In this document: positions 5,219-60,070 of the stretch, one piece after another
Position numbering within the stretch: position 1 is the stretch's first letter
Layout of the letters: each line of letters starts with the position of its first letter
From: Atriophallophorus winterbourni
Taxonomy: Eukaryota > Platyhelminthes > Trematoda > Plagiorchiida > Microphallidae
Reading direction: 5' to 3'
Assembly (NCBI GenBank): GCA_013407085.1
Contig: JACCGJ010001766.1
Coordinates: 1-64,000 of the forward strand
Length of the DNA: 64,000 bases
Program-made: the position numbers and the translations under genes
The notes under the pieces: model-generated
The model's input: the letters and a program-made list of their open reading frames with translations, nothing else
Database searches by the model: none
Told to the model about the DNA's origin: nothing

Positions 5219-5305
5219 CTGACACTGCATTTTTTTCATTTACGATAAATTCGTATTTGTAAATTTTTTGGCTTATATTTTGGAATACTCACTTAACACC
5301 CCACC

Positions 5306-8300
5306 ATGAGCGATTTTTCCATAAGTAAAGTTTCCACAATCCTACAATCACAACATATTCCATGCACATTACCGGCTTTAAACGTTTCTAATCTCCCTCT
5401 TTGGTTCGGCCAAATTGAAGCTATTTTTCGTATATATGGCATCACCGATGAATCTATTATGTATTCTCATGTGGTGACCCTGCTCCCTCTCGACGTAGCT
5501 GAACAAGTCAGTGATCTTATTTATGCTATGCCTGAGGTCAAGCCATACGAAAAGCTCAAATCCGCTCTAATAGACCGAATTGGTTTTTCTGAGCAAGAGA
5601 AGCTCGACGTCCTCTTTTCCAAAATGGCTCTTGGTGATAAAAAGCCATCTCAGCTTCTTCGCCAGATGAAAGAGCTACTTGGAGACAAAAGGATTGAGGA
5701 GAGCATTTTAACACAGTTGTGGTTTAAAAACCTCCCAGCTGACATTTGCCAAGTGCTTGCTGGTTTGATTACTTACGTATCATTAGACGAACTAGCACAA
5801 GCGGCTGACAAAATGCTCGAAGCAAAAGAAGCCGACCAAATTACGGTTGATTCCGCACACATCAATTCGCCCTGTCCATGTTCGGAATTAAAAGAACAAG
5901 TCGCTGAACTAACTCTTGCGGCGAACTCTCTTTTGTCAAAATCTACCAACCCACCTCGCTCAAAATCTAAATCTCGACCATCGAAAACCCCTGAGCGCGT
6001 ATGTTGGTACCACAAGAGATATGGGGATAAAGCCTCAAAATGCATCTCTCCGTGTTCAAAAACCGTCAAAATCAAGGGTCAATCAGTTACGGCGACTACT
6101 GTTCCCGGCCTACCAAACCCGAGTCGCCTATTCTATGTTACAGACAAATCGAGTGGTCTGCGTTTTCTAGTCGATACTGGCGCTGAAATTAGCGTCATAC
6201 CTCCAACATCCAGCACCTCCAAACCGTCGTCCTACACTCTTCAAGCGGCAAATGGCACTCGTATTAACACTTACGGCCAACGCCTGCTAACCCTCAACTT
6301 AGGACTAAGACGCAGTTTTCCATGGGTGTTTCTCATCGCGGAGGTAAATTGCCCAATAATCGGCATCGACTTTCTGTCTCACTTCGGTCTAACCGTCGAA
6401 GTAAAACAGCGAAGATTAGTAGATACGAAAACCTCTTTACAGGTCTCAGGTATCACTACTAAAGCCGTTTCCTCCGGCATCAAAGCTGTTACTCCAGAAG
6501 CTTCGACTTTTTGTGCTATACTGCATGAATTCCCATCCGTCATGCATCCCCCAAGACCGACAGACAAAGTGACACACTCCGTAAAACATCACATTGTCAC
6601 TAACGGACCACCAGTCTCCTTCAGACCGAGGCGACTTCACCCGTCGAAACTCAAAATCGCAAGAGCCGAATTCGAGCACATGCTAGAGCTTGGGATCATC
6701 CGTCCCTCTTCCAGCTCCTGGTCGTCACCACTTCATATGGTCCCCAAGAAGACCTCAGATGACTGGAGGCCATGCGGCGACTATCGTGCTCTCAACAATC
6801 GAACGGTCCCCGACAGATATCCGGTGCCACACATCCACGATTTCTCTTTGAATCTTTGTGCCACGACGATACTTACTAAGCTTGATCTCGTCCGTGCTTA
6901 TTATCACATCCCGGTAGCCGAGGAAGACATACCCAAAACGGCAGTCACGACTCCTTTCGGCTTATACGAATTCACTCGGATGCCCTTTGGCCTGAGAAAC
7001 GCTGCACAAACCTTCCAACGTTTCATCGACGAAGTCTTGCGAGGCTTGCCGTTCGCCTACGCATACATCGACGACGTCTTGATTGCCAGCAACTCTCCAG
7101 AAGAGCATGTCGAGCACATCCGTCTCGTTTTAGAGCGTTTCGTTAACTACGGGATAAAGATCAACCCAAGTAAATGCATTTTCGGCACAGATTCACTGGA
7201 CTTCCTCGGTCATCGCCTTACTCGATCTGGTATCACACCTCTTCCCGAGAAATGCCAGGCGATTTCCGACTTTCCTGTCCCCACAACGGTAACGCAGTTG
7301 CGCCGCTTTATCGGCATGATCAACTTTTACCGTCGCTTTATTCCAAACTGCGCAAAGATCATTGCACCGCTGACCGATTTGCTCGACTCCAAATCAAAAT
7401 CTCTTCAGCTTTCGCCTGAGGCACTTGAAGCTTTTGCCGCATCCAAAAAAGCTCTTTGCAGTGCCACAGAACTCTCATTCATTGATCCGGAACCGACCTT
7501 TCCTTTGTCATTGACGACCGATGCCTCCAATTCGGCTGTTGGAGCTGTTTTACAACAACACCACAAGAACACAGTCCGTCCACTGGCATTTTTCTCGCAA
7601 AAGCTTAATCCGGCACAAACTCGCTACAGCACATTTGGCCGTGAATTACTTGCGATATATTTGGCCATACGGCATTTCCGTCATTTACTGGAAGGTCGTG
7701 ACTTCATTATCTTTACGGATCACAAACCATTAACTTTTGCTCTGCAGTCTAAACTTGATCGTCATTCGCCACGCGAGATTCGCCACTTAGATTACATCTC
7801 TCAGTTCTCTACCGATATTCGTTACGTCAAAGGAGATGCTAACTTGGTCGCCGATGCTTTATCAAGACCTGACATTTCTGTTTTGTCTACAGACACACCA
7901 TTTGATCTCTCCCTTTTGACTAACCATCAAGCCGAGATTGATAAAACCGAACTCGCGAAGTGTCGATCCCTGGATTTGCAGCAAATTCAGTTACCAAACG
8001 CCGATGCCTCGTTGACGTGCGATATCTCGACAGGGAAACCTAGACCTTTTGTCCCTCTTTCTCTGCGACGTGCCATTTTCGATCATTTTCATTCGATGTC
8101 TCATCCTGGAAAGCGTGCCACCGTGAGGCTAATCGCAGATCGTTTTGTTTGGCCGTCCATGAATAAGGATATACGAAATTGGGTCCAGCATTGCATTCCT
8201 TGTCAAAAGAACAAGATATCTCGACATACCTTCACACCTTACGTTCCATTTAGGCATCCCAACTGTCGATTCTCTCATGTGCATCTTGATCTCGTCGGTC

Positions 8301-9223
8301 CTATGCCATCATCGAACGGATACTCATTCATCCTAACGGCGATTGATCGCTTTACTCGATGGCCGATTGCTGTTCCGATCAAAGACACATGTTCAGAGAC
8401 TGTAGCACGCGCCTTCGTCGAACATTGGATTGCCAATTTTGGCACACCATCTGTCATCACTACCGACCGTGGCGCTCAGTTTCAATCGACTTTGTTCCGA
8501 GATTTGACGCGACTCCTTGGCTGCCAGCACATCCGAACCACCGCCTACCACCCTAACTCGAACGGATTGGTTGAACGCTTCCATCGGCAGCTTAAAGCCT
8601 CTTTAGCTTGCCAGCCTGATCCTAATAAATGGACTGAGAATTTGCCACTTGTTCTTCTTGGAATACGTTCCGCTATCAAAGAAGACATGCAGTGCTCAGC
8701 CGCAGAGTTAGTTTTTGGTACCGCCTTGTGTCTTCCCGGTGAACTCGTTGTGCCCTGCCAGTCACTACCTCCGGCGTCAGATTACATTTCTCGCTTGCGC
8801 ACGTTCATGTCCAAGTTGGACTTTACGCCTCCTCGTCAGCGCATTATCCACCAACAGAAATCACCTCATCTTGATACGTGTGATTTTGTTTTTGTGCGAC
8901 GCGACTCTGTTTGTAAACCTCTTCAGTCATCCTATCACGGACCTCACAGAGTTATCGAGCGTAAACCCAAGTTCTTCGTTTTGGATATGAATGGTCGACG
9001 TGACACAGTTTCTATTGACCGCTTAAAACCCGCTTTTGTCGAGCTTAAGCCGCAATCTCCGCCAAGCATCACTACGCCTCACGCACAACTCCCTGATAAT
9101 CCTCATGTGCCAACCTCCACCCATGTTCATCCCAATTCCCCGGTCCCTCCTACCCCCGTTCAAACCCGAACCGGTAGACATGTGCACTGGCCCAAACGCC
9201 TTGCTGACTACGTGACCTTATGA
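5306..9223 (+). CDS. Gag-Pol polyprotein of the CsRn1-like retrotransposon
   Basis: One uninterrupted 1305-residue frame. Gag occupies about residues 1-250 and ends in a CHCC zinc finger, C233-x2-H-x9-C-x3-C250, not the usual CCHC knuckle. An aspartic protease follows with DTG at 290-292. Reverse transcriptase spans about 440-640 with catalytic YIDD at 587-590. RNase H follows with TDAS (D739) and the TDHKPL block. Integrase has an HHCC finger (H929/H933, C963, C966) and a DD35E triad at D995, D1054 and E1090. The C-terminus is proline-rich with no chromodomain seen. Gag and Pol share one frame with no frameshift signal, so they should be made as one precursor and cut by the protease. The ATG at 5306 is the first in frame after a 109-nt leader. 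No broken motif was seen. Confidence 0.96.
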
Positions 9224-17425: not shown

Positions 17426-17429
17426 CCTT

Positions 17430-17585
17430 TATCCAAAAGTGGCATACAACCACGATTTTTTAACCATTCTCCCACTGTTTCATGCGCATGTGGATCCCGA
17501 TTATACTGTCACTACCTCATGAGTACAAACAGCACGTAACCGGTTGTTGGGTATCTGTGATGGTAATGCTTTTACATGAGCTTTT
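17430..17585 (+). repeat. Hammerhead-ribozyme repeat, degenerate plus-strand copy
   Basis: Matches the unit seen at 51512-51981: GTGGCATACAA, TTAACCATTCTCCCACTG, then CACTAC, CTCATGA, GTAC, AAACA, GCAC, GTAACCGG near 17509-17544. Compared with a hammerhead core, the G of CUGA is C here and GAAA has become GTAA, so this copy should not cleave. Confidence 0.68.
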
Positions 17586-49500: not shown

Positions 49501-52497
49501 CCGCACCACATAGTGTTAGTTTTGGTGGGGGTGATATACCGTTCTAAATGATTCGTGTTTTAGTGTATACAAATCGAAATGGTAATACAAATTACTGGTG
49601 TGTCTCTTGGTAATTGGTTTCCTTATTCTCGTTCAGATGCTGGACGATAAAGGCAATACCGCAGTCTATCTTCTATACGCCTACACGCGAATAAGGTAAA
49701 TACTTTCTTTTGTTGCACCGTCGCGCTTATTTACACACTTCACGTATCGTCTAAAAACGTTGCCACCGATTTACCGTACAATCGAAGTTTGTAAAGTTTT
49801 TTGCCTGGATGGATAGACATCCTAATTCTAACTTGCAGGCGTCATAATGAAACGATCACGCAAAATTCCACTTGATTGAATACGTACACTCTGAAACTTT
49901 CTTTGCTCACACGTAACTGAAAATGATTCTTCCGTGGTTTTTGAGTTGATTGCCAGTTAATTTATTCTAGTATACTTTGTTCCACTTTCCATATAGTTGC
50001 TTTAGCCCTCTGGTTCTTTCCCATTTTATCCCCTCATTCTCCTAAAATATTGCATGAGTGTGCAATCGTACAGTACTTTTTGCCGTGAGTTGCCATCTGT
50101 AGTGAGCTTCAATCGGAAGTACACTGGAGTCTCACTAACATTTCTATTTTGTTTTCATATCTGTCTATATGACTGTGCGGTACTTCGCCTGGATTAGGCT
50201 TGCGATTTCATGCATACCGGTTTATTATCATACCAAAAATTATAATCGGAAAGCAATTAATTACAGACAGGGAAAACGATCATTGCACGAACATAAAATG
50301 CTGTAAGAACCAGGCTGACAATGACATTTTTTGCTACAAGACGAAAAACCGAACACCCGTCACACACCACTTGGAATGATGCCTTGCATACTATGGTTTG
50401 CAAACAACTCTTTTTGAGAAAGACTGCTTTACTTTAACGTTTTACCTGGAACATTTCCTCTTTCTGTTTTGCATTTTCATGGTAGATGTGACTAGAAAAC
50501 CGTAGCATGCTATTGCCATTCCGATTCTTACTGATTCTTTTCGCAACCGGTTTGTTATTACCAACTACTGAAATATATATTCTTCTAATGAAAATGAAAC
50601 TTTAATTAATCTAAGATTTACTTTACTTTACTTTTGTGCGAATATCTCCTCCTGGAGGATGAGTCGGCTTCAATGAATATTCTTGGGAATTTGGGTACAA
50701 AGCGGCGTCCGCAGCACCACTCGGCGTTTGTTCGAGTCAGCTTCTCTAGCCCTTGCACAACCAAGTGCTACCTGCGAGGCAGCAGAGAGGTGGTGTGCAC
50801 CAACTAACCGTCTACCAAACTCTGTTTCAGATTTTTCCGTAGGGTTTTCTCACGAAGCCTTTCCCGCGATCGGGTGTCCCACAAGACAGCGGAGGTTCAA
50901 AATCAGGGTTTTCCTTGCCTTAGATGAAATGCCCTCCCAGGCTAAGGAGCTCCATCTGCACTTGTATGTCACTGTTGAATAAGATTGGTACGACCAACCT
51001 GTTCGATCACGTGCCCAACCCTATGTATATGGGGTTAATCCCTCAATTGCATGCGTTTCCATCACACACGACCGCTTTTGTGATGTTTGCACTTATCAGG
51101 TAGAGACAGTACGATCAGAATCTGTGTGGAGTGAAACATTGGGATAAATCTCATCTACATGTTTTTAGGGCACCTGTGATTGACCAAGTTGGTCTTACCA
51201 ATCTTATTTTAACAGTGTCATGCAAGCGCCAATCTTGCTTGACATCTAGTTTCACTGTCGTTCTAATCGTGAACAATACTCACCTCGTGGGCCTCATCAA
51301 ACTGGATGTTTGATGGGCACGCTTCACCTCCTTTATAGATTTCCATTGCTTGTTTCTATCCAACCTTGTTCGTTTTCTCAACCCACATTTACGCGTTGAT
51401 TGCACTATCTAATACCTGGTACCGATGAGTTATTCGGAAATGTCAGTCTACCCATAACATTCTGATTTGTTCCTTCAAATTATCAAGGATGCAAAACTGT
51501 AACAGGTTTCCAAGTTGCGTTTGTATACCACTGTTGGGTAAGGTTGGTACGACTAACCTATTCAAGCACACGAGCCGTCACTCATGTAGACTGGGTTTGA
51601 ACCCATGATCATGAATAAAAATGCTCATATGCACGCATCTCCATCACACACACCCCACGACCAGTTTCGTGCTGTTTGCACTCATCAGGTAGGGACAGTA
51701 GGATAGAATGTCTGAAGTAGAGGAATGCAAATCAGCTTTTTCTTTCATGGTCATGGGTTCAAACCCAGTGTACGTGAGTGGGGGCTCGTGTGATTAAACA
51801 TGTTGGTCGTACCAATCTTACCCAACAGTGGCATACAAGCGCAACTTGTTTACCATTCTTCCACTGATTCAAACGCATGCGGATCCTGATCCTACTGTCC
51901 CTACCTGATAAGTGCAAACAGCACGAAACCGGTCGTGGTGTGTGTGTGTGTGTGATGGAGATGCATGCAAATGAGCATTTTTGTAACAGGTTTCCTTTTT
52001 TTGTTTTATATAGTTTCCACTCGTGATCGTACTAATTCTTTTATTTTTTCTTCTTTTCTATGTCAAGGTCAATAGCAAGAAATGCCGGGTACACAAGTGA
52101 ACAGTTGACGAAACTGGCACAACAAGGGGAACCACTTCTTCTGGAACACCCAACCGAATGGAATTTGGCCAAAGCGATATGTCGTCTTCCGGATGTTCTA
52201 CTTCGAATCCAAAATGACTTCCTGCTTCATCACTTGTGTGATTACCTCTACGACCTTAGTTGTACCTTCACAAGTTTCTACGATAGCTGCTATTGCGTTG
52301 AAAGAAACAAGGAGACGGGTAAATTTTCGCTTTTTTCCGACTTGCTTTTTCTTTTTTCAATCACACCATACTGTATTTTTCTTCTAGGTTCGGTCATTAA
52401 AGTTCATACAAGCCGTCTGTTGTTGTGTGAAGCGACGGCCAAGGTGATGAAATGCGGTTTCGAAATTCTAGGGCTGAGGACCTTGGAGAAAATTTAA
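40500..52497 (+). CDS. RARS1: Arginyl-tRNA synthetase, cytosolic (13 coding exons)
   Basis: Charges tRNA-Arg with arginine in the cytosol. Exons: 40500-40514, 40546-40671, 40702-40890, 40920-41009, 41037-41215, 42153-42463, 43390-43676, 45957-46066, 46143-46248, 46339-46452, 49637-49695, 52068-52318, 52388-52497. All phases join, giving 648 residues, close to the ~660 of animal enzymes. In order: a coiled N-terminus (LNYRLRHLN), the ArgRS N domain ([15 protein letters not shown]), the class I signature [17 protein letters not shown] with HVGH as the HIGH motif, [19 protein letters not shown], the catalytic stretch with [25 protein letters not shown] in place of a canonical KMSKS (normal for eukaryotic ArgRS), [13 protein letters not shown], and the anticodon-binding domain with FYDSCYCVE. 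The start ATG was chosen because it opens the first exon of the frame; a cassette upstream is possible. All introns are GT-AG except intron 10 (GC-AG). Confidence 0.95.
40546..41215 (+). CDS. RARS1: Arginyl-tRNA synthetase exons 2-5 with micro-introns
   Basis: Exons of 126, 189, 90 and 179 nt separated by introns of 30 (40672-40701), 29 (40891-40919) and 27 nt (41010-41036); intron 1 is 31 nt (40515-40545). All begin GT and end AG, and removal restores the ArgRS frame across [15 protein letters not shown] / ELQLLS and NDIIDK / [10 protein letters not shown]. Exon 5 carries [15 protein letters not shown]. Confidence 0.93.
41285..41701 (-). repeat. Inverted-repeat arm in ArgRS intron 5 (family A composite)
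   Basis: About 417 bp, including a family A head (TAGTGAGCTGCATGCG, CATATCTGTCTAGACTAGGG) and ~270 bp of other sequence (ATATCGCGATATTTAAGGAC, TTAATGAACTGCA, AATTATAGAGATATACACG). It is nearly identical to the reverse complement of 47578-48000. Confidence 0.85.
41702..41790 (+). repeat. Repeat family A, 3' part, ArgRS intron 5
   Basis: CTGTCTAGGCTAGGGCAACC through GGATCAGGCTTGTGATTTCA and a CATACATACAG tail. Confidence 0.75.
42153..42463 (+). CDS. RARS1: Arginyl-tRNA synthetase exon 6
   Basis: 311 nt coding [20 protein letters not shown] through [10 protein letters not shown], the Rossmann catalytic domain, with the conserved [11 protein letters not shown] and IGDLQAFYK blocks. Donor GTCCCA is weak in sequence but fits phase 1. 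Confidence 0.95.
42530..42790 (-). repeat. Repeat family A, minus copy, ArgRS intron 6
   Basis: Nearly full unit: ATGGCATGAAAGCACAAGCC, CTAGACAGATAGGAGG, TTAGCACGATGTTAGCC, GCTGCACGATTGCAGATCC. Confidence 0.8.
43157..43320 (-). repeat. 3' end of the ~580-bp retroposon family, ArgRS intron 6
   Basis: Starts on the plus strand with (TTA)n (43158-43185) then ATTTGCACAATCTGATACAG, reverse complement of the end of the insert at 32910-33490. About 150 bp remain; the rest is truncated. Confidence 0.75.
43390..43676 (+). CDS. RARS1: Arginyl-tRNA synthetase exon 7
   Basis: 287 nt coding [20 protein letters not shown] and [20 protein letters not shown] through YVVDCGQ, the substrate-binding part of the catalytic core. 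Confidence 0.95.
43797..44116 (+). pseudogene. RTE-like LINE 3' fragment, ArgRS intron 7
   Basis: Matches 25500-25805: GGAGGCATTGTGTAAAGCGT, CATCTGCAAGC, GCTCTCGGCTGCTGA, CGAAATAGACCGAAAGAGAC and a CAACAGCAAAC tail. It is a 5'-truncated insertion of the same family as 22651-25810, in the sense strand of the gene. Confidence 0.8.
44117..45315. other. Unassigned middle part of ArgRS intron 7
   Basis: Only short ORFs on both strands and no recognisable repeat landmarks. Ordinary intron sequence as far as can be seen. Confidence 0.45.
45316..45402 (+). repeat. Repeat family A, 3' part, ArgRS intron 7
   Basis: TTTGTCTAGGCCTGGGAAAC through GGATCAGGCTTGTGCTTTCA, with a small deletion after CTGTGCGG. 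Confidence 0.75.
45466..45607 (+). repeat. (GTAT)n microsatellite
   Basis: About 35 units of TATG with one TACG variant (near 45556). It abuts the tail side of the family A copy at 45608 and is probably that copy's tail, expanded. Open frames here in every reading are artefacts of the repeat. Confidence 0.95.
45608..45790 (-). repeat. Repeat family A, minus copy, diverged, ArgRS intron 7
   Basis: ACAAACCTGGATCCAGGC, AAGTGCCACACAGTCGTAGA, GAGGGTGAGATTCCAGC and GCATGCAATTCGGTACCGG keep the family order with many substitutions. Confidence 0.7.
45957..46452 (+). CDS. RARS1: Arginyl-tRNA synthetase exons 8-10
   Basis: 45957-46066 codes [17 protein letters not shown]...VLGEDR; 46143-46248 codes [20 protein letters not shown] and the following helix; 46339-46452 codes [20 protein letters not shown] and [18 protein letters not shown]. 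Introns between are 76 and 90 nt. The donor after exon 10 is AAG/GCAAGT, a GC-type donor. Confidence 0.94.
46500..46745 (-). repeat. Short repeat family B (TCCTCCTGGAGGATGAG), ArgRS intron 10
   Basis: Starts with GTGCGATTATCTCCTCCTGG and GGATGAGTCGG, and includes AGCTCCATCTGC. It shares both ends with 50610-50990 but differs in the middle. The 3' tail is missing here. The plus-strand sequence TCCTCCTGGAGGATGA is a near-palindrome. Confidence 0.6.
47040..47222 (-). repeat. Repeat family A, minus copy, diverged, ArgRS intron 10
   Basis: GATAGTGTCAGCTTGCCCAC, GGGAGTGAGATTGCATC, CAGCTCACTACCGGTCGC, TTAGCACGGTGTTCGC retain the family order; the tail half is absent. Confidence 0.68.
47578..48000 (+). 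repeat. Inverted-repeat arm in ArgRS intron 10 (family A composite)
   Basis: Reverse-complementary partner of 41285-41701 with only a handful of differences by eye over about 420 bp. It ends in family A sequence (GTCTAGACAGATATGAGAAA, GCATGCAGCTCACTACCG). Confidence 0.85.
48073..49185 (-). mobile_element. pogo/Tigger-like DNA transposon, internally deleted
   Basis: 1113 bp with 26-bp terminal inverted repeats starting CACTCAAATC and containing GTACTATGCCACC (two mismatches between ends), flanked by TA at 48071-48072 and 49186-49187, the Tc1/mariner-superfamily target duplication. It interrupts a family A repeat (AGATAC / TCAGGTTGCCCAGG). A 48-bp segment (48103-48150 and 49114-49161) is also repeated in direct orientation near both ends. 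Inside is a truncated transposase on the minus strand. Non-autonomous. Confidence 0.92.
48281..48835 (-). CDS. Truncated pogo/Tigger-like transposase: DNA-binding domains only (184 aa)
   Basis: Residues ~10-60 form a CENP-B N-type helix-turn-helix ([30 protein letters not shown]). Residues ~80-140 match the second CENP-B-type HTH ([36 protein letters not shown]). The frame then reaches the beginning of the DDE nuclease at [11 protein letters not shown], where NLDET carries the first catalytic aspartate, and stops. The remaining D and D/E are absent. In a second frame immediately after, 48282-48196 reads [14 protein letters not shown], like a transposase C-terminal tail, suggesting an internal deletion joined the N- and C-terminal coding parts out of frame. 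The residual protein could still bind DNA; no evidence of host use. Confidence 0.88.
   Translation of the reverse strand: MSAQKRKRTDFTLKEKFEIIDAAKKEPNQSKLAREISKKWGVEVKRTTVKCILSKKDTIEAAIKAGVPWKRLKLTQPHDLKFEEGVLMWLKQARGLNLPVSGDLVKEKAIELGELMHIPDFMASDGWLDSFKKRNDVTFKTVQGEAGAVDSQSFIDWQQQVLRPLLRQFSAAEVFNLDETDASV
49188..49636. other. ArgRS intron 10, 3' part
   Basis: Holds the end of the interrupted family A repeat (49188-49215) and another family A scrap at 49405-49470 (TAGGCCTTGGCAACCTGTCA). Otherwise nothing recognised. Confidence 0.5.
49637..49695 (+). CDS. RARS1: Arginyl-tRNA synthetase exon 11
   Basis: 59 nt coding [20 protein letters not shown], a block highly conserved in ArgRS (compare the family pattern MLD-x-GNTA-x-YLLYA-x-TRI). 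It lies between the two largest introns. Confidence 0.93.
50085..50220 (+). repeat. Repeat family A, deleted copy, ArgRS intron 11
   Basis: TAGTGAGCTTCAATCGG, GGAGTCTCACTAACATTTC, CATATCTGTCTATATGACTG, then GGATTAGGCTTGCGATTTCA. The block CTAGG...CAGTCTC is deleted; 53296-53445 has the same deletion, so these two form a subfamily. Confidence 0.72.
50610..50990 (-). repeat. Short repeat family B with (AAAGT)n tail, ArgRS intron 11
   Basis: On the minus strand it ends CGCACAAAAGTAAAGTAAAG (50614-50640 on plus). The unit contains TCATCCTCCAGGAGGAGATA and GCCTGGGAGGGC. The tail and the last ~55 bases resemble the LINE 3' end at 3040-3105, so it may be a SINE dependent on that LINE. No protein-coding content; a 99-codon ORF across it is not supported. 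Confidence 0.6.
50962..51290. repeat. Inverted dimer of the hammerhead-ribozyme repeat, degenerate
   Basis: A minus-strand unit (50962-51130) and a partial plus-strand unit (51165-51290) share landmarks with 51512-51981: GATTGGTACGACCAACCTG, TTCCATCACACACGACCG, and on the right GTTGGTCTTACCAATCTTAT, CAGTGTCATGCAAGCGCCAA. The central spacer (AGAATCTGTGTGGAGTGAAA) also corresponds. The hammerhead here is damaged: CUGAUAA for CUGAUGA, a mismatch in stem II, and AAAA for GAAA. Confidence 0.7.
51653..51694 (-). ncRNA. Hammerhead ribozyme, complete core
   Basis: Read on the minus strand from 51694: stem I strand CCCTAC; CTGATGA (51688-51682); stem II GTGC / GCAC closing loop AAACA; GAAA (51668-51665); CTGGTC, where A15.1-U16.1 and C-G make a very short stem III; predicted cleavage after GUC at 51659; then GTGGGG (51658-51653) pairing with CCCTAC through five Watson-Crick and one G-U pair. 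All core nucleotides (CUGAUGA, GAAA, GUC) match the hammerhead consensus. The near-palindromic stem III (ACTGGT; ACCGGT in the sister copy) resembles ribozymes thought to work as dimers. Cleavage is predicted, not shown. Confidence 0.85.
51897..51942 (+). ncRNA. Hammerhead ribozyme, plus copy with G8-to-A change
   Basis: CCCTAC (51899-51904), CTGATAA (51905-51911), stem II GTGC / GCAC with loop AAACA, GAAA (51925-51928), CCGGTC with cleavage expected after 51934, then GTGGTG. The sixth core base (G8, a catalytic residue in the family) is A, and stem I has one mismatch, so activity is doubtful. A (TG)n run follows at 51937-51952. Confidence 0.78.
52068..52497 (+). CDS. RARS1: Arginyl-tRNA synthetase exons 12-13 (anticodon-binding domain and stop)
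   Basis: 52068-52318 codes [40 protein letters not shown] and [15 protein letters not shown]; a 69-nt intron follows; 52388-52497 codes [20 protein letters not shown] to LRTLEKI and TAA at 52495-52497. The DALR-type anticodon-binding domain is complete. No canonical AATAAA was noticed nearby. Confidence 0.95.
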
Positions 52498-54759: not shown

Positions 54760-55060
54760 GGACTAAATGAAGGTGTTGTTAGCTGATGACGAACCATTAG
54801 TAAGGAAAACTACTCTATCCTGCGACAGGTTGGAAACCAGTCAAGATCTCGATCTCTGTTTATCGTCATCAGGTGGATACAATAAGATTAGGTTCAGTGA
54901 GCCTTTAAACAGTGGATAAATGGTAAACAAAGTTATACTTGAATGCCACTGTTACATAGGGTTCGTACAACGAACCACGATGTTCAATCACAGAATCACA
55001 GTGATTCGTGGTCGAGCACTCAAGGCGCTTATGGATGACGAGAAGCCGCTAGTTGTGTAA
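54760..55060 (-). repeat. Hammerhead-ribozyme repeat, degenerate minus copy
   Basis: On the minus strand: GTAACAGTGGCATTCAAG, TTTACCATTTATCCACTG, then near 54893-54855 CCAC, CTGATGA, CGAT, AAACAGAG, ATCG. The stem II bases have changed on both sides (CGAT/ATCG), preserving pairing, but GAAA is altered. The gene-side B box is not recognisable. Confidence 0.55.
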
Positions 55061-55299: not shown

Positions 55300-55350
55300 G
55301 TGTGCGCGCGATTTAACAGGTTGGTCGTACCAGCCCTATCCAACAAAAAA
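55300..55350 (+). repeat. Hammerhead-repeat fragment
   Basis: Only AACAGGTTGGTCGTACCAGC and CCTATCCAACA of the unit remain. Confidence 0.5.
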
Positions 55351-58131
55351 TGTTCGTTTAAGGAGCATTTTAATCTATAACAACATCCCGTGACTTGTAA
55401 TGCTCATTAGTTTAACTTTAATTTTTTAAGCTGCTCTGTAAGATCTGCAATTACGATCTCTTTCTTAATCAACGATATTTTCAGACCCTTGCTAATTGTA
55501 TTCATTTTAATAAACGTAACATACTCAATGTTGAGGGCATGTTTAGCAGTCAAGTGTTCCGTCGAACCCACCAGAACATTAGATTTTGATCTGGTGGCTT
55601 AATGATGGCTTGTTTTCATTCTCGAGTTGCAGTCAATTCCAGATGACCATAAATTGGTTATCTATGCAAACAAATTGCAACCAGTCGCAGTATTTGACCA
55701 TCGTACAGACGATGTTGCATTCCGTGTCACATTGATGAGTTTTGTCCATATTTCCTGACTTATATCAACCACGTTTCTAATGGAGTTGGGTTTAAAGATG
55801 AGTGAGCTCAACGGAATCGCTACAGACACTTCTCAGTGAAAAATTATCGCCGAGAGAACAGACAAAACTTCTTGATTCATTCGGTTCATTCTCGAGATTT
55901 ATTCTTTTCATTAATGTGAGTCCAGAATTGTTCATTTGTACCAAGTCATGCTGTCGTTAGTATCCTGGTGCTCATCACCACTTAGAAAAATTCTAAACCA
56001 CGAAGCGTTAGATTTCTTGCTGGAGATTGCTACAAAACACTAGGTTTATCTACTTGTCATTATATATCATGAAACACATTGTATATGAAGTCTCGTCACT
56101 AAATAATTTCTCAAAAATTAATTCAATTCTCCCGCTTATTTTCAACATACAACAGTCAGTTATTTATAGGGGTGGTGTTCTATTAATTGTCGTACAGTTT
56201 GCGGTTCCGATAAGTTAAAATCCAATAGAAACTCGTCCATTTCTTTAACTAGGCAATCGTGCTAATTCTATTACAAATCAACCTTGGCTACGCCTAATCT
56301 CCATTTCAGACTATAAATTCTCGAACGCAAATCGATCCGTTTATTTAACGTGAGAAAACAAAACGATGATGATAAGTCACACACACAACCGTCTTAGCTC
56401 CCAACAGACATTTTGTGTTATTCTATTTGTGGCGCGCGAGAATAGGCGAGGCGAATAAAACAACATACATAACCGTTTCCCACGGTTTACTCTCTGCTTC
56501 CCCGTCCGAATTTACTCGCCTACCTTTGATCTCTGGGGATTTCAGCCTGACCGTAACCGATTCGTGTTTTGGGTGGTTAGAAATAATTGATGTGTTGTTC
56601 TGTTTGATCAAATTGACGTGAATTAAATACTTGATGTTGTTTTTGCAAAGATCATGCTGTGATTAGTGCAAACTGTTTGAAGTATCGACGTTGAATGTGT
56701 TGCTGCTTAATCCGCTTAAGATGGCGCAACCATTGAGATTATTTTTTCAGTTTGTTAGTTTACCTCGTCATATTTGAAAGTACATACACAAGCCAAACTG
56801 ATAGCTAACGATGTCACAATATTCATGTTATGAAACTACAGCATTATGCCAAATTAAACAAATCTAAATGTAAGATTTCATCCTAACGGAATCATGTTGG
56901 GTGCTCGTGAAAAGTAATAAGAATTCAGCTTGTCAGGAATCGCTAATAGGGCCATGGAATTAGATAAGAAAACCAAATAGAACTGAAAATATCAGTACAG
57001 ACGACGAGAGAGACTGAGCCCAGATGAAATCGTCGCAACCGGTAAAGGCTGTAAGTAACCTCATCTCATTCTTTGGATATGCAACAAATAAACTGAACTG
57101 TCCATATACTTTTGCTTGTTCAAGCGTTCGGGCAGAAATGTTACCGTTTACCACAAGAGGTATGTCGTATCATTTCTCCAGATGGAACGAATTCTAAAGA
57201 TGTTGGTCATTTCACGTATTGGAATGGATAGCAGTGCAAGGTGCGAATTTCACTTATTCTCTGGAGGTTAACTCACATTATATTTCTAAAATGGTGGAAC
57301 CGGGGGGCGCAAATGGTAGAAGCTAACTGAAACGCGGATGAACGTAGGGAACAACGGATGGATTAATGTAGTCAATCATTCGAATCTTGTATTACTTTAA
57401 ATCGATTCTTGAGCGTATTTCTCGCAAGTGTACACGTAAGGAAAGAGAGGGATCAAACTTGAACAACTTGACTGTTGTGTCCAGCTGTGTATACACGCAA
57501 TTCAATATGAAAATATTATGCGGAATTGTATCCCTTTTATCGACCAAAACTATCATCTTCCGCAGATTACATTAAATGAGAGCATCGAAACTATAATGAG
57601 TGAGCGAGCTGAATGCATTTTCTCAAAAATTAAGATTTATCGTAAAACGGACACAAAGTTGCAACACTATAAGTTGCACAATGTTCATTGGAACTTCGCC
57701 AAACGGATATGATTTCACAGATCATGTCCCACAGTCAACGGCGTGTACAGCCGTAGCGCGACAACTCGGCGAGAAGGCAACTATATATTAGCCTGATAAG
57801 CACGGCGTAGGACGTCGGAAACAATGCAATGATCAACAAAACGGCACCTAATGAAGCTGATGGAAATAAATAAAATGGTTCATTAATTTATCATTTTGGT
57901 GTTATGCTCACATTCATTCAGGCTAATTTTACGCACCTCACAGCCGAAATTGAACGCTAATTCTGTTGGTAGTTTCTATTCCTTCAAACAAATTTTGGGT
58001 ATGAATTATAGGACCTAACATCGTTCTATCCTTTCGCTAATTTTGACCTTTCTTTTTTGCGCAAAGTTCGTAGCACTCTTGATCACATGGACTACCCGGT
58101 CATTATACCTTTTTGCCGATTTTAACTCGGA
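55351..58131. other. Gene-poor AT-rich region up to the scaffold gap
   Basis: Numerous short ORFs under 70 codons, no domains, no exon-like open stretches with good splice sites, and no recognised repeat family. Confidence 0.45.
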
Positions 58132-59131
58132 NNNNNNNNNNNNNNNNNNNNNNNNNNNNNNNNNNNNNNNNNNNNNNNNNNNNNNNNNNNNNNNNNNNNN
58201 NNNNNNNNNNNNNNNNNNNNNNNNNNNNNNNNNNNNNNNNNNNNNNNNNNNNNNNNNNNNNNNNNNNNNNNNNNNNNNNNNNNNNNNNNNNNNNNNNNNN
58301 NNNNNNNNNNNNNNNNNNNNNNNNNNNNNNNNNNNNNNNNNNNNNNNNNNNNNNNNNNNNNNNNNNNNNNNNNNNNNNNNNNNNNNNNNNNNNNNNNNNN
58401 NNNNNNNNNNNNNNNNNNNNNNNNNNNNNNNNNNNNNNNNNNNNNNNNNNNNNNNNNNNNNNNNNNNNNNNNNNNNNNNNNNNNNNNNNNNNNNNNNNNN
58501 NNNNNNNNNNNNNNNNNNNNNNNNNNNNNNNNNNNNNNNNNNNNNNNNNNNNNNNNNNNNNNNNNNNNNNNNNNNNNNNNNNNNNNNNNNNNNNNNNNNN
58601 NNNNNNNNNNNNNNNNNNNNNNNNNNNNNNNNNNNNNNNNNNNNNNNNNNNNNNNNNNNNNNNNNNNNNNNNNNNNNNNNNNNNNNNNNNNNNNNNNNNN
58701 NNNNNNNNNNNNNNNNNNNNNNNNNNNNNNNNNNNNNNNNNNNNNNNNNNNNNNNNNNNNNNNNNNNNNNNNNNNNNNNNNNNNNNNNNNNNNNNNNNNN
58801 NNNNNNNNNNNNNNNNNNNNNNNNNNNNNNNNNNNNNNNNNNNNNNNNNNNNNNNNNNNNNNNNNNNNNNNNNNNNNNNNNNNNNNNNNNNNNNNNNNNN
58901 NNNNNNNNNNNNNNNNNNNNNNNNNNNNNNNNNNNNNNNNNNNNNNNNNNNNNNNNNNNNNNNNNNNNNNNNNNNNNNNNNNNNNNNNNNNNNNNNNNNN
59001 NNNNNNNNNNNNNNNNNNNNNNNNNNNNNNNNNNNNNNNNNNNNNNNNNNNNNNNNNNNNNNNNNNNNNNNNNNNNNNNNNNNNNNNNNNNNNNNNNNNN
59101 NNNNNNNNNNNNNNNNNNNNNNNNNNNNNNN
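58132..59131. other. Assembly gap of exactly 1000 N
   Basis: A run of 1000 undetermined bases, a round number that suggests a fixed-size scaffolding placeholder, so the true distance is unknown. The long X-filled frames across it are artefacts. Confidence 0.98.
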
Positions 59132-59200
59132 GAAAGTAAATGGTTTTTATTCACCTTATACCTACTAGTTAATTAGATTTTTGTTTTTCTTCAAAAATAG

Positions 59201-59347
59201 CCTTAGCCCCATTAGTTATGTACTTTTACGACCGTGTTCACTTGTATCAGATTGATGTGGATACACACTGTGAGAAAAATGGACCACTGACCCTGGTCAT
59301 TCCCACGAGACGTTACGCACTGAAGGCCTACTATAAGCTGTTCAGCG
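59201..59347 (+). CDS. Possible internal exon of an unidentified gene
   Basis: A pyrimidine-containing acceptor (TTTTTCTTCAAAAATAG) precedes 59201 and a strong donor (AGCG/GTAAGA) follows 59347; the 147 nt between are open in one frame, reading LAPLVMYFYDRVHLYQIDVD, THCEKNGPLTLVIPTRRYAL and KAYYKLFS. Both boundaries are phase 1-compatible, so the exon could be skipped without a frameshift. The amino-acid composition looks coding, but no family was recognised and no neighbouring exon was found; upstream partners may lie in the gap. Confidence 0.4.
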
Positions 59348-60070
59348 GTAAGATCAAATAAGTGGTGATGGGTTGACTACTACTTAATCATGTGACCTGT
59401 CCTGACTATCACCCTTGGTCTGACGAAGCTTCTGTGTCGGAAGTGAAACGTTACCCAAAAACTACTCTAACCGATTGCACTCAAATTTCCTTGCATTATG
59501 AATACACGATCGGTCCCAAACGTATTCCGATCGATTGCTGACGTACATTTCAATTTTAACAACCTTATGGTTATTGCTAAGCTTGATGCTGTTTTGACCA
59601 TTAAACACCTTGAATTACCTTGGATTTACTTCGGGATTCTCGGATTCACTTTACTGGAGATTTTGCTTGATTGTCTATTTCAATCAAAAGATGCTTTATT
59701 ACGACGAAACAAGTTCTACTTCTTTACGATGATTGCGAAAACGAGCAATCAATACGCCTAACAATGCAATCACGACCATAATCATCAAACGCGTTCAAAA
59801 TTAGAGGGTCAAATGACAGCTCTGACCTATCGATTTTAAATGAAACATTTGAGGGCAACCAACTCATCGCAGATGCCTGAGTGAGATTGGCGACCGTGGT
59901 CTGTCAAAAATCTCTTCCCGATTAATTTAAATGCATGGTCATTTGGCCGAGGATATCTTATCCAAACGACGTCTTGAATGCTGCAATTTACACCTTTGTC
60001 CTAATCGAAGGCTTCGAACTTTCAGAGTTGTTTTATTCTAACAAGAAAAACGCATACCAACTTATGCAAA
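59348..60070. other. Spacer
   Basis: An 87-codon ORF at 59498-59761 with a hydrophobic centre (YFGILGFTLLEILLDCLF) is the only notable open stretch; no supporting evidence for a gene. Confidence 0.4.

What the first reader, a model, noticed from the sequence alone, without database searches (positions are those of the whole stretch)
51498..51995. Inverted dimer of a hammerhead-ribozyme retroposon inserted as one unit
Two units of the same repeat in opposite orientation, each with a B-box-like GGTTCAAACCC and a hammerhead motif, lie between perfect 14-bp direct repeats TGTAACAGGTTTCC. The direct repeats flank the whole pair, so the inverted dimer appears to have inserted in one event. Hammerhead SINE-like repeats are known in schistosomes (Sm-alpha), usually as head-to-tail units; an inverted, self-complementary dimer as the mobile form is not something I know to be described. 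Its RNA would be a long hairpin with a ribozyme at each side.
Basis: partly seen in the sequence, partly recalled or inferred. Interest (0 to 1): 0.92.

Follow-up and report, generated by a model that had tools for sequence, protein, structure and literature searches.

The report
Ribozyme retroposon inserting like Penelope elements
A short mobile repeat carrying a self-cutting RNA often sits in this genome as two facing halves, apparently because both cut DNA ends copy its RNA at once; the larger Penelope elements of the same genome show matching scars, which points to Penelope enzymes as its likely movers.

Summary
Window 51498-51995 is an inverted pair of a 236-bp hammerhead repeat between perfect 14-bp direct repeats, and it is best read as one insertion. 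The interpretation, that an inverted dimer is the mobile form, is not supported. Of 66 distinct loci read, 29 are head-to-head; of the 34 picked by unit similarity (window copy included), 13 are (11 strictly). In the 27 two-piece cases no two share an inversion junction, so the inversion seems to arise anew at each insertion.

The outer ends are not random. Sense pieces end about 44 nt past the hammerhead cut; most inverted pieces end at a hairpin about 150 nt past it. Penelope-like elements (PLEs) of the same genome show related anatomy: tandem units, head-to-head pairs (about 9 independent against 0 tail-to-tail among the hits examined), and copy ends mostly 43-50 or 73-81 nt past their own hammerhead cut. 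One PLE composite has the same asymmetry.

Best reading: a metazoan non-LTR retrozyme copied by a PLE enzyme that primes from both target strands. PLEs had been proposed as mobilisers; this is anatomical evidence, not proof. RNA, circularity and the enzyme were not tested.

The parts
51498..51511 (+). left copy of the 14-bp target site duplication TGTAACAGGTTTCC
   Evidence: exact match to 51982-51995 and nowhere else in the window; score reached by 0 of 4290 mismatched locus pairs
51512..51704 (-). inverted arm of the retrozyme, unit positions about u191 to u386 (u150 of the next unit); its outer end is at the hairpin start site
   Evidence: 92.3% to the 236-bp consensus unit, aligned 51511-51704
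51653..51694 (-). type I hammerhead ribozyme, core CUGAUGA...GAAA intact; predicted cut between 51659 and 51658
   Evidence: RF00163, 32.5 bits, E 6e-6, gathering score 34; cut place read
51705..51708 (.). inversion junction: 4 bases (agaa) that fit neither arm
51709..51981 (+). sense arm, unit positions about u11 to u278; 3' end 47 nt past its hammerhead cut, followed directly by the right target duplication
   Evidence: 92.5% to the consensus unit; distance read
51835..51849 (+). hairpin ACAAG-CGCAA-CTTGT (u137-151); inverted arms end in u144-163 in 17 of 27 two-piece composites
   Evidence: pair probabilities 0.92-0.96 in the consensus; end clustering
51899..51940 (+). second hammerhead, core reads CUGAUAA (G8 to A at 51910), probably inactive; cut position after 51934
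   Evidence: RF00163, 20.7 bits, E 0.05; positions read
51982..51995 (+). right copy of the target site duplication
50957..51240 (.). separate, more diverged head-to-head pair of the same repeat: 50957-51142 (-), 51168-51240 (+)
   Evidence: 84.9% and 82.9% to the consensus

Best explanation
The element is a metazoan non-LTR retrozyme: a 236-bp hammerhead repeat too short for its own enzymes. It is copied in trans by a Penelope-like element (PLE) protein. The protein nicks both target strands 8-15 bp apart. One nicked end starts reverse transcription about 44 nt past the hammerhead cut; the other starts at a hairpin about 150 nt past the cut, on the same or a tandem RNA. The two cDNAs are joined at their inner ends. 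This leaves an inverted 5' piece facing a sense 3' piece between target duplications. Shown here: the anatomy and its likeness to the genome's PLEs. Inferred: the PLE enzyme, two-strand priming, and the RNA form.
For: (1) Ends are fixed. Sense 3' ends fall in u33-56 in 28 of 33 one-piece single-direction loci and 20 of 27 sense arms; inverted-arm outer ends fall in u144-163 in 17 of 27. The 48 sense ends in u33-56 have median 44.5 nt past the cut, IQR 41-48.
(2) No two of 27 junctions agree within 2 nt. Target duplications of 8-15 bp are significant in 12 of 29 head-to-head and 15 of 34 single-direction loci. Arm identities correlate, rho 0.71.
(3) PLEs of the same genome: GIY-YIG protein abundant (150 scored of 6113 candidates). 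Neighbours within 4 kb, from 60 of the 150 rows: 16 head-to-head, 0 tail-to-tail, 13 same-strand with period 2509-2527. Eight of the 16 have one spacing (239-243 bp) and belong to one palindromic repeat family, so the independent count is about 9 to 0. A hammerhead core lies between two tandem frames (L093 473-506).
(4) PLE copy ends, 18 loci read: 9 at 43-50 nt past the cut, 6 at 73-81, 1 at 25, 1 runs through a tandem, 1 not alignable. L082: inverted arm to the distal site, sense arm to the proximal site, weak 11-bp direct repeat.
(5) Anolis PLE protein cleaves and extends both strands and starts RT at two adjacent internal sites, in an AC-rich stem loop, HHR cut 26 bp past the start codon (PMC11167929, parts 1-2 of 4). 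[quoted passage not shown]
Against: No match to the retrozyme unit was found in the PLE pieces L093/L094, and I see no clear likeness of the start regions by eye. The second start site is at about 150 nt in the retrozyme but 73-81 nt in the PLE. Ten of 27 inverted arms do not end in u144-163; three end at u94-100. In 5 of 12 composites with a significant duplication, the duplication overlaps the inverted arm by 3-8 nt, which would fit microhomology priming. In 39 of 66 loci no duplication passed the threshold. Loci were picked by similarity to the window copy and, for 32 of 66, by its junction, so frequencies are not genome-wide rates. In L033, L035, L037, L049 and L054 neither assigned end sits at the tail site, so which arm counts as sense is arbitrary; L054 is cut by the contig end. 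Half of the PLE head-to-head pairs are one repeated palindrome. PLE end data are 18 loci. A LINE with a fixed start site is not excluded. No tool named the organism, and RNA was not examined.
Confidence: 0.7

Rival explanations
1. Twin priming by a LINE (L1-type), with no PLE involved: the second target strand primes inside the RNA by short homology.
For: L1 makes 5' inversions in about 31% of insertions with the same head-to-head geometry (PMC2912911 passages). LINE reverse transcriptases lie in the window. In 5 of 12 composites with a significant duplication the duplication overlaps the inverted arm by 3-8 nt.
Against: The internal start is a fixed place (17 of 27 in u144-163), and 7 of the same 12 composites overlap by 2 nt or less. 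Trans-mobilised Alu shows 1 five-prime inversion in 5554 insertions, against 13 of 34 sampled here. The proximal end lies in the same distance range from the hammerhead cut as the PLE proximal end.
Confidence: 0.18
2. The inverted dimer is itself a mobile unit that propagates.
For: Head-to-head pairs are common and look like single events. A junction query finds loci aligned along its whole length at 75-82%. A palindromic PLE-bearing repeat in this genome has spread with one fixed junction spacing, so inverted forms can multiply here by some route.
Against: All 27 retrozyme junctions differ. The full-length alignments turn out to be different arm combinations. Single-direction copies are the largest class. 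The PLE palindrome continues beyond the PLE arms and is another kind of repeat.
Confidence: 0.04
3. Two independent insertions next to each other, or DNA-level inversion or assembly artefact.
For: A few loci have arms of clearly different identity (L005, L007, L056, L057, L069, L075).
Against: One significant duplication surrounds the pair in 12 of 29 head-to-head loci; arm identities correlate; tail-to-tail order occurs in 3 of 66 (L056, L057, L069), each with arms of unequal identity; the same inversion is present in both contigs of a duplicated locus (L004/L063, L023/L024, L027/L067, L033/L034, L051/L052).
Confidence: 0.05
4. Self-priming on an antisense RNA or fold-back of the first cDNA makes the inversion, as proposed for rotifer PLEs.
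For: Suggested for head-to-head PLEs with palindromic junctions (PMC3846280 discussion).
Against: Junctions here are not palindromic by eye, and in many composites the two arms cover complementary parts of one unit (about u10-152 inverted, u160-200 to u280 sense), as expected when both strands prime on one RNA.
Confidence: 0.1

Closest known systems
Metazoan non-LTR retrozymes (Cervera and de la Pena 2020, PMC7229834)
   Same: type I hammerhead, 236-bp tandem-capable unit, GC 48%, target duplications longer than 4 bp; platyhelminths named among the hosts
   Different: frequent head-to-head composites with fixed start sites are not described in the parts read (abstract, passages, sections 14 and 17; the word 'inverted' does not occur in its main text); circular RNA not tested here
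Penelope-like elements, e.g. rotifer Penelope (PMC3846280) and Anolis Poseidon (PMC11167929)
   Same: partial tandems, inverted copy at the 5' end, short duplications, hammerhead, 3' ends at fixed places past the hammerhead cut, one arm with tail and one without
   Different: no RT/GIY-YIG frame; unit 236 bp against about 2.52 kb; second start site further from the cut; helix III of 2 bp with a loop (my reading) instead of the minimal hammerhead
Schistosome Sm-alpha SINE-like repeats (Ferbeyre 1998, known here only as cited in PMC8490949 and recalled)
   Same: hammerhead-bearing short retroposon
   Different: sequence relation to Sm-alpha not tested; Pol III promoter not established here
5'-inverted human L1 by twin priming (PMC2912911, passages)
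   Same: inverted 5' part facing sense 3' part inside one target duplication
   Different: the start inside the RNA is largely fixed here; short trans-mobilised Alu almost never shows inversion

Membership tests
Metazoan non-LTR retrozyme | type I hammerhead in each unit | tested here: met
   RF00163 E 6e-6 at 51653-51694, below gathering score; CUGANGA...GAAA core found 76 times against 111 unit spans counted in 66 loci; no Rfam hit at gathering score in 20 loci
Metazoan non-LTR retrozyme | unit of about 150-450 bp occurring in tandem | tested here: met
   236-bp unit; arrays in L002, L003, L025, L060
Metazoan non-LTR retrozyme | GC below 50%, target duplications above 4 bp | tested here: met
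   GC 0.483; 8-15 bp where significant
Metazoan non-LTR retrozyme | expressed as small circular RNA | not testable with these tools
   no RNA data
Penelope-like element (as member) | RT plus GIY-YIG open frame | tested here: not met
   no open frame of 120 aa or more overlaps 51498-51995; it could only be a non-autonomous rider
PLE-type insertion (as mechanism) | head-to-head inverted copy at the 5' side inside one target duplication | tested here: met
   29 of 66 loci head-to-head, duplication significant in 12 of 29
PLE-type insertion (as mechanism) | reverse transcription starts at fixed internal sites past the hammerhead | tested here: met
   clustering of copy ends; that these ends are RT starts is inferred
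PLE-type insertion (as mechanism) | enzyme shown to act on this RNA | not testable with these tools
   needs biochemistry
tRNA-type SINE | Pol III A and B boxes at tRNA spacing | tested here: inconclusive
   B box: 2 mismatches to the strict form in the window arms, 3 in the consensus, but the window arms fit the loose recalled form; best A-like site (2 mismatches) lies downstream of it, and a 3-mismatch site lies 40 nt upstream; ARAGORN found no tRNA
Foldback or MITE DNA transposon | constant terminal inverted repeats at both ends of all copies | tested here: not met
   34 of 66 loci are single-direction with variable 5' ends

The most novel reading that the evidence does not exclude
Non-LTR retrozymes are to Penelope-like elements what SINEs are to LINEs. 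The hammerhead together with a start site about 44 nt past its cut is the recognition handle for the PLE protein, and a second hairpin start serves the other target strand, so that about a third of sampled insertions come out as head-to-head composites.
Probability: 0.53. Interest if true: 0.75.

Novelty: new variant of a known kind. Interest (0 to 1): 0.62.

Why it matters
Animal genomes carry hammerhead repeats whose mobilising enzyme is not established; PLEs were named a strong candidate on co-occurrence and shared features (PMC7229834 discussion). Here the insertion scars of both element types in one genome agree in end position, asymmetry and orientation bias. That makes the question directly testable with one purified PLE protein and one 280-nt RNA, and suggests a role for the hammerhead fold in PLE recognition.

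Tried and rejected
Inverted dimer as mobile form: rejected on junction diversity. An empty allele of the window insertion: the joined-flank query found only the filled locus, so no empty site is shown. A whole-window test for a 14-bp repeat at the same distance gave 504 of 63480 positions, presumably the tandem repeat near 58-59 kb, and is not used. Rfam at the gathering threshold gave nothing, nor did Rfam list the PLE hammerheads; the PLE hammerhead rests on a pattern match, whose script scored stem II as 0 because the stem I read starts one base later. A sample anchored on the 3' tail only and a DNA search with the PLE inter-ORF region did not complete. Folding put the u150 site at the 3' side of a hairpin; the PLE distal site also lies at a hairpin, but this is two cases only. 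Of the 80 loci L001-L080, L031 (the window locus again) was dropped and 13 duplicates were merged before counting; one of the 40 scored places (contig C247) was not fetched. L005 and L007, counted head-to-head, have three pieces with more diverged inverted parts; without them set A is 11 of 34, and they are not among the 27 two-piece loci.

Full report
WHAT IS THERE. Window 51498-51995 holds a 14-bp direct repeat at each end (TGTAACAGGTTTCC), an inverted arm 51512-51704, four unmatched bases, and a sense arm 51709-51981. Both arms belong to a repeat that is common in this 537-Mb genome (3790 first-look candidates, 40 scored). From 25 loci I made a consensus; cut-to-cut at the hammerhead it is 236 bp. 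The left hammerhead scores 32.5 bits against RF00163 (gathering score 34), the right one 20.7, with A in place of G8.

ONE EVENT, BUT NOT ONE MOBILE FORM. I compared 79 loci, the window's own (L001) included, and merged duplicates by shared flanks to 66. Of 34 chosen by unit similarity, 20 run in a single direction, 13 are head-to-head (the window's among them), and 1 is other. Of 32 chosen with the window junction (one of its 40 scored places was not fetched), 14 are single-direction, 16 head-to-head, and 2 other. Tested against 4290 mismatched locus pairs, a target duplication with p < 0.01 surrounds 12 of 29 head-to-head and 15 of 34 single-direction loci, and 0 of 3 others. Their lengths are 9-15 and 8-14 bp. 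In 27 two-piece head-to-head loci the identities of the two arms to the consensus correlate (rho 0.71, p 3e-5), as they should if both arms entered together. No two of these 27 share an inversion junction within 2 nt. So the inversion seems to be made at each insertion, and the pair is not a propagating form. Tail-to-tail order occurs in 3 of 66 (L056, L057, L069), with arms of unequal identity.

FIXED START SITES. Sense 3' ends fall in u33-56 (33-56 nt past the hammerhead cut) in 28 of 33 one-piece single-direction loci and in 20 of 27 sense arms. Inverted arms end at u144-163 in 17 of 27, with six at exactly u150. Three single-direction loci also end at u152-155. In many composites one unit is split: about u10-152 is inverted and u160-200 to u280 is sense. 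That is what is expected if both nicked target strands prime on one RNA, and the second cDNA stops where the first began. Inner ends of the inverted arms lie in u1-40 in 16 of 27, and 5' ends of single copies lie in u1-16 in 10 of 33. This is close after the hammerhead cut and would fit a cleaved template, but a Pol III start there is not excluded. The junction-selected loci bias the inner ends but not the outer ones. In 12 composites with a significant duplication, the duplication overlaps the inverted arm by 2 nt or less in 7 and by 3-8 nt in 5, so short homology may help in some. In the consensus fold the u150 site is the 3' side of the hairpin ACAAG-CGCAA-CUUGU.

THE PLES OF THE SAME GENOME. 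A GIY-YIG scan and a protein search with one piece of it (6113 candidates, 150 scored) show many Penelope-like elements, with stop-to-stop frames up to 858 aa. Among hits on contigs with more than one (60 of 150 rows), neighbours within 4 kb are head-to-head 16, tail-to-tail 0, and same-strand 13 with period 2509-2527 bp. Eight of the 16 (on C13518, C13450, C5432, C3257, C11839, C3643) have the same 239-243 bp spacing; in the five I compared, the palindrome runs on beyond the PLE arms at 97-100% identity. They are one spread repeat, so the independent count is about 9 to 0. The region between two tandem frames (L093) carries a hammerhead core at 473-506. I then read where PLE copies stop relative to that cut: of 18 loci, 9 stop at 43-50 nt, 6 at 73-81 nt, one at 25 nt, one runs on into a tandem copy, and one could not be aligned (for L098, L102 and L106 the distance was taken through reference coordinates). 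The retrozyme's 48 ends in u33-56 have median 44.5 and IQR 41-48. One PLE composite, L082, has an inverted arm from the cut to the distal site (up to 82 nt) and a sense arm ending at the proximal site (about 45 nt), within an 11-bp direct repeat with one mismatch, whose score lies between the 95% and 99% points of the null. This is the same asymmetry as in the window pair.

WHAT IS KNOWN. [quoted passage not shown]). A purified Anolis PLE protein cleaves and extends both target strands and starts reverse transcription at two adjacent internal sites, which explain the tail (PMC11167929, parts 1-2 of 4). Metazoan retrozymes with type I hammerheads are known, platyhelminths included, and PLEs are called a strong candidate for their mobilisation (PMC7229834, abstract, passages, sections 14 and 17; also PMC7761336 passages and section 8). 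In human data 5' inversion is 31% for L1 but 1 of 5554 for Alu (PMC2912911 passages), so a short non-autonomous element with about a third of sampled copies inverted is unusual. Searches for hammerhead with Clonorchis and Opisthorchis (0 papers), for hammerhead, retrozyme, inverted and target site duplication (12 listed) and for PLE-mobilised SINEs (15 of 170 listed) showed no paper that by title or abstract start describes head-to-head retrozymes. I read only the parts named, and the library misses most subscription journals.

VERDICT. Shown: the anatomy of the window pair, signs of its one-event origin, junction diversity, clustered ends, and the likeness to PLEs. Inferred: PLE protein as the enzyme, two-strand priming, and the RNA form. 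Not shown: circular RNA, activity of the ribozyme, and an empty allele (one search found only the filled site).

Noticed in passing
window 50957-51240: A second, more diverged head-to-head pair of the same repeat about 260 bp upstream; its sense arm also ends at u153.
   Followed up: partly
window 17429-17585, 54866-54992, 55310-55345: Diverged fragments of the same repeat.
   Followed up: no
window 58015-59176: All six reading frames stay open for 337-385 aa in a GC-poor stretch (0.29 for 56001-60000), probably a tandem repeat without stop words.
   Followed up: no
window 5297-9223: 1308-aa open frame with DUF7041, RVT_1, RNase H and integrase domains, an LTR retroelement.
   Followed up: no
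window 52036-52497: DALR anticodon-binding domain frame, arginyl-tRNA-synthetase-like, right beside the insertion; the insertion may lie in an intron.
   Followed up: partly
L033 and L034: Two contigs with the same left flank and inversion but different length of the sense arm, perhaps alleles differing in unit number.
   Followed up: no
L060 (G000:C12153): Long head-to-tail array of the repeat, at least six units.
   Followed up: no
L083 (G000:C11839), L110-L117, and C13518, C13450, C5432, C3257, C3643: A palindromic repeat with PLE endonuclease pieces facing each other at a constant 239-243 bp, spread to at least 8 places; in five compared, the palindrome extends beyond the PLE pieces. How it multiplies is open.
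   Followed up: partly
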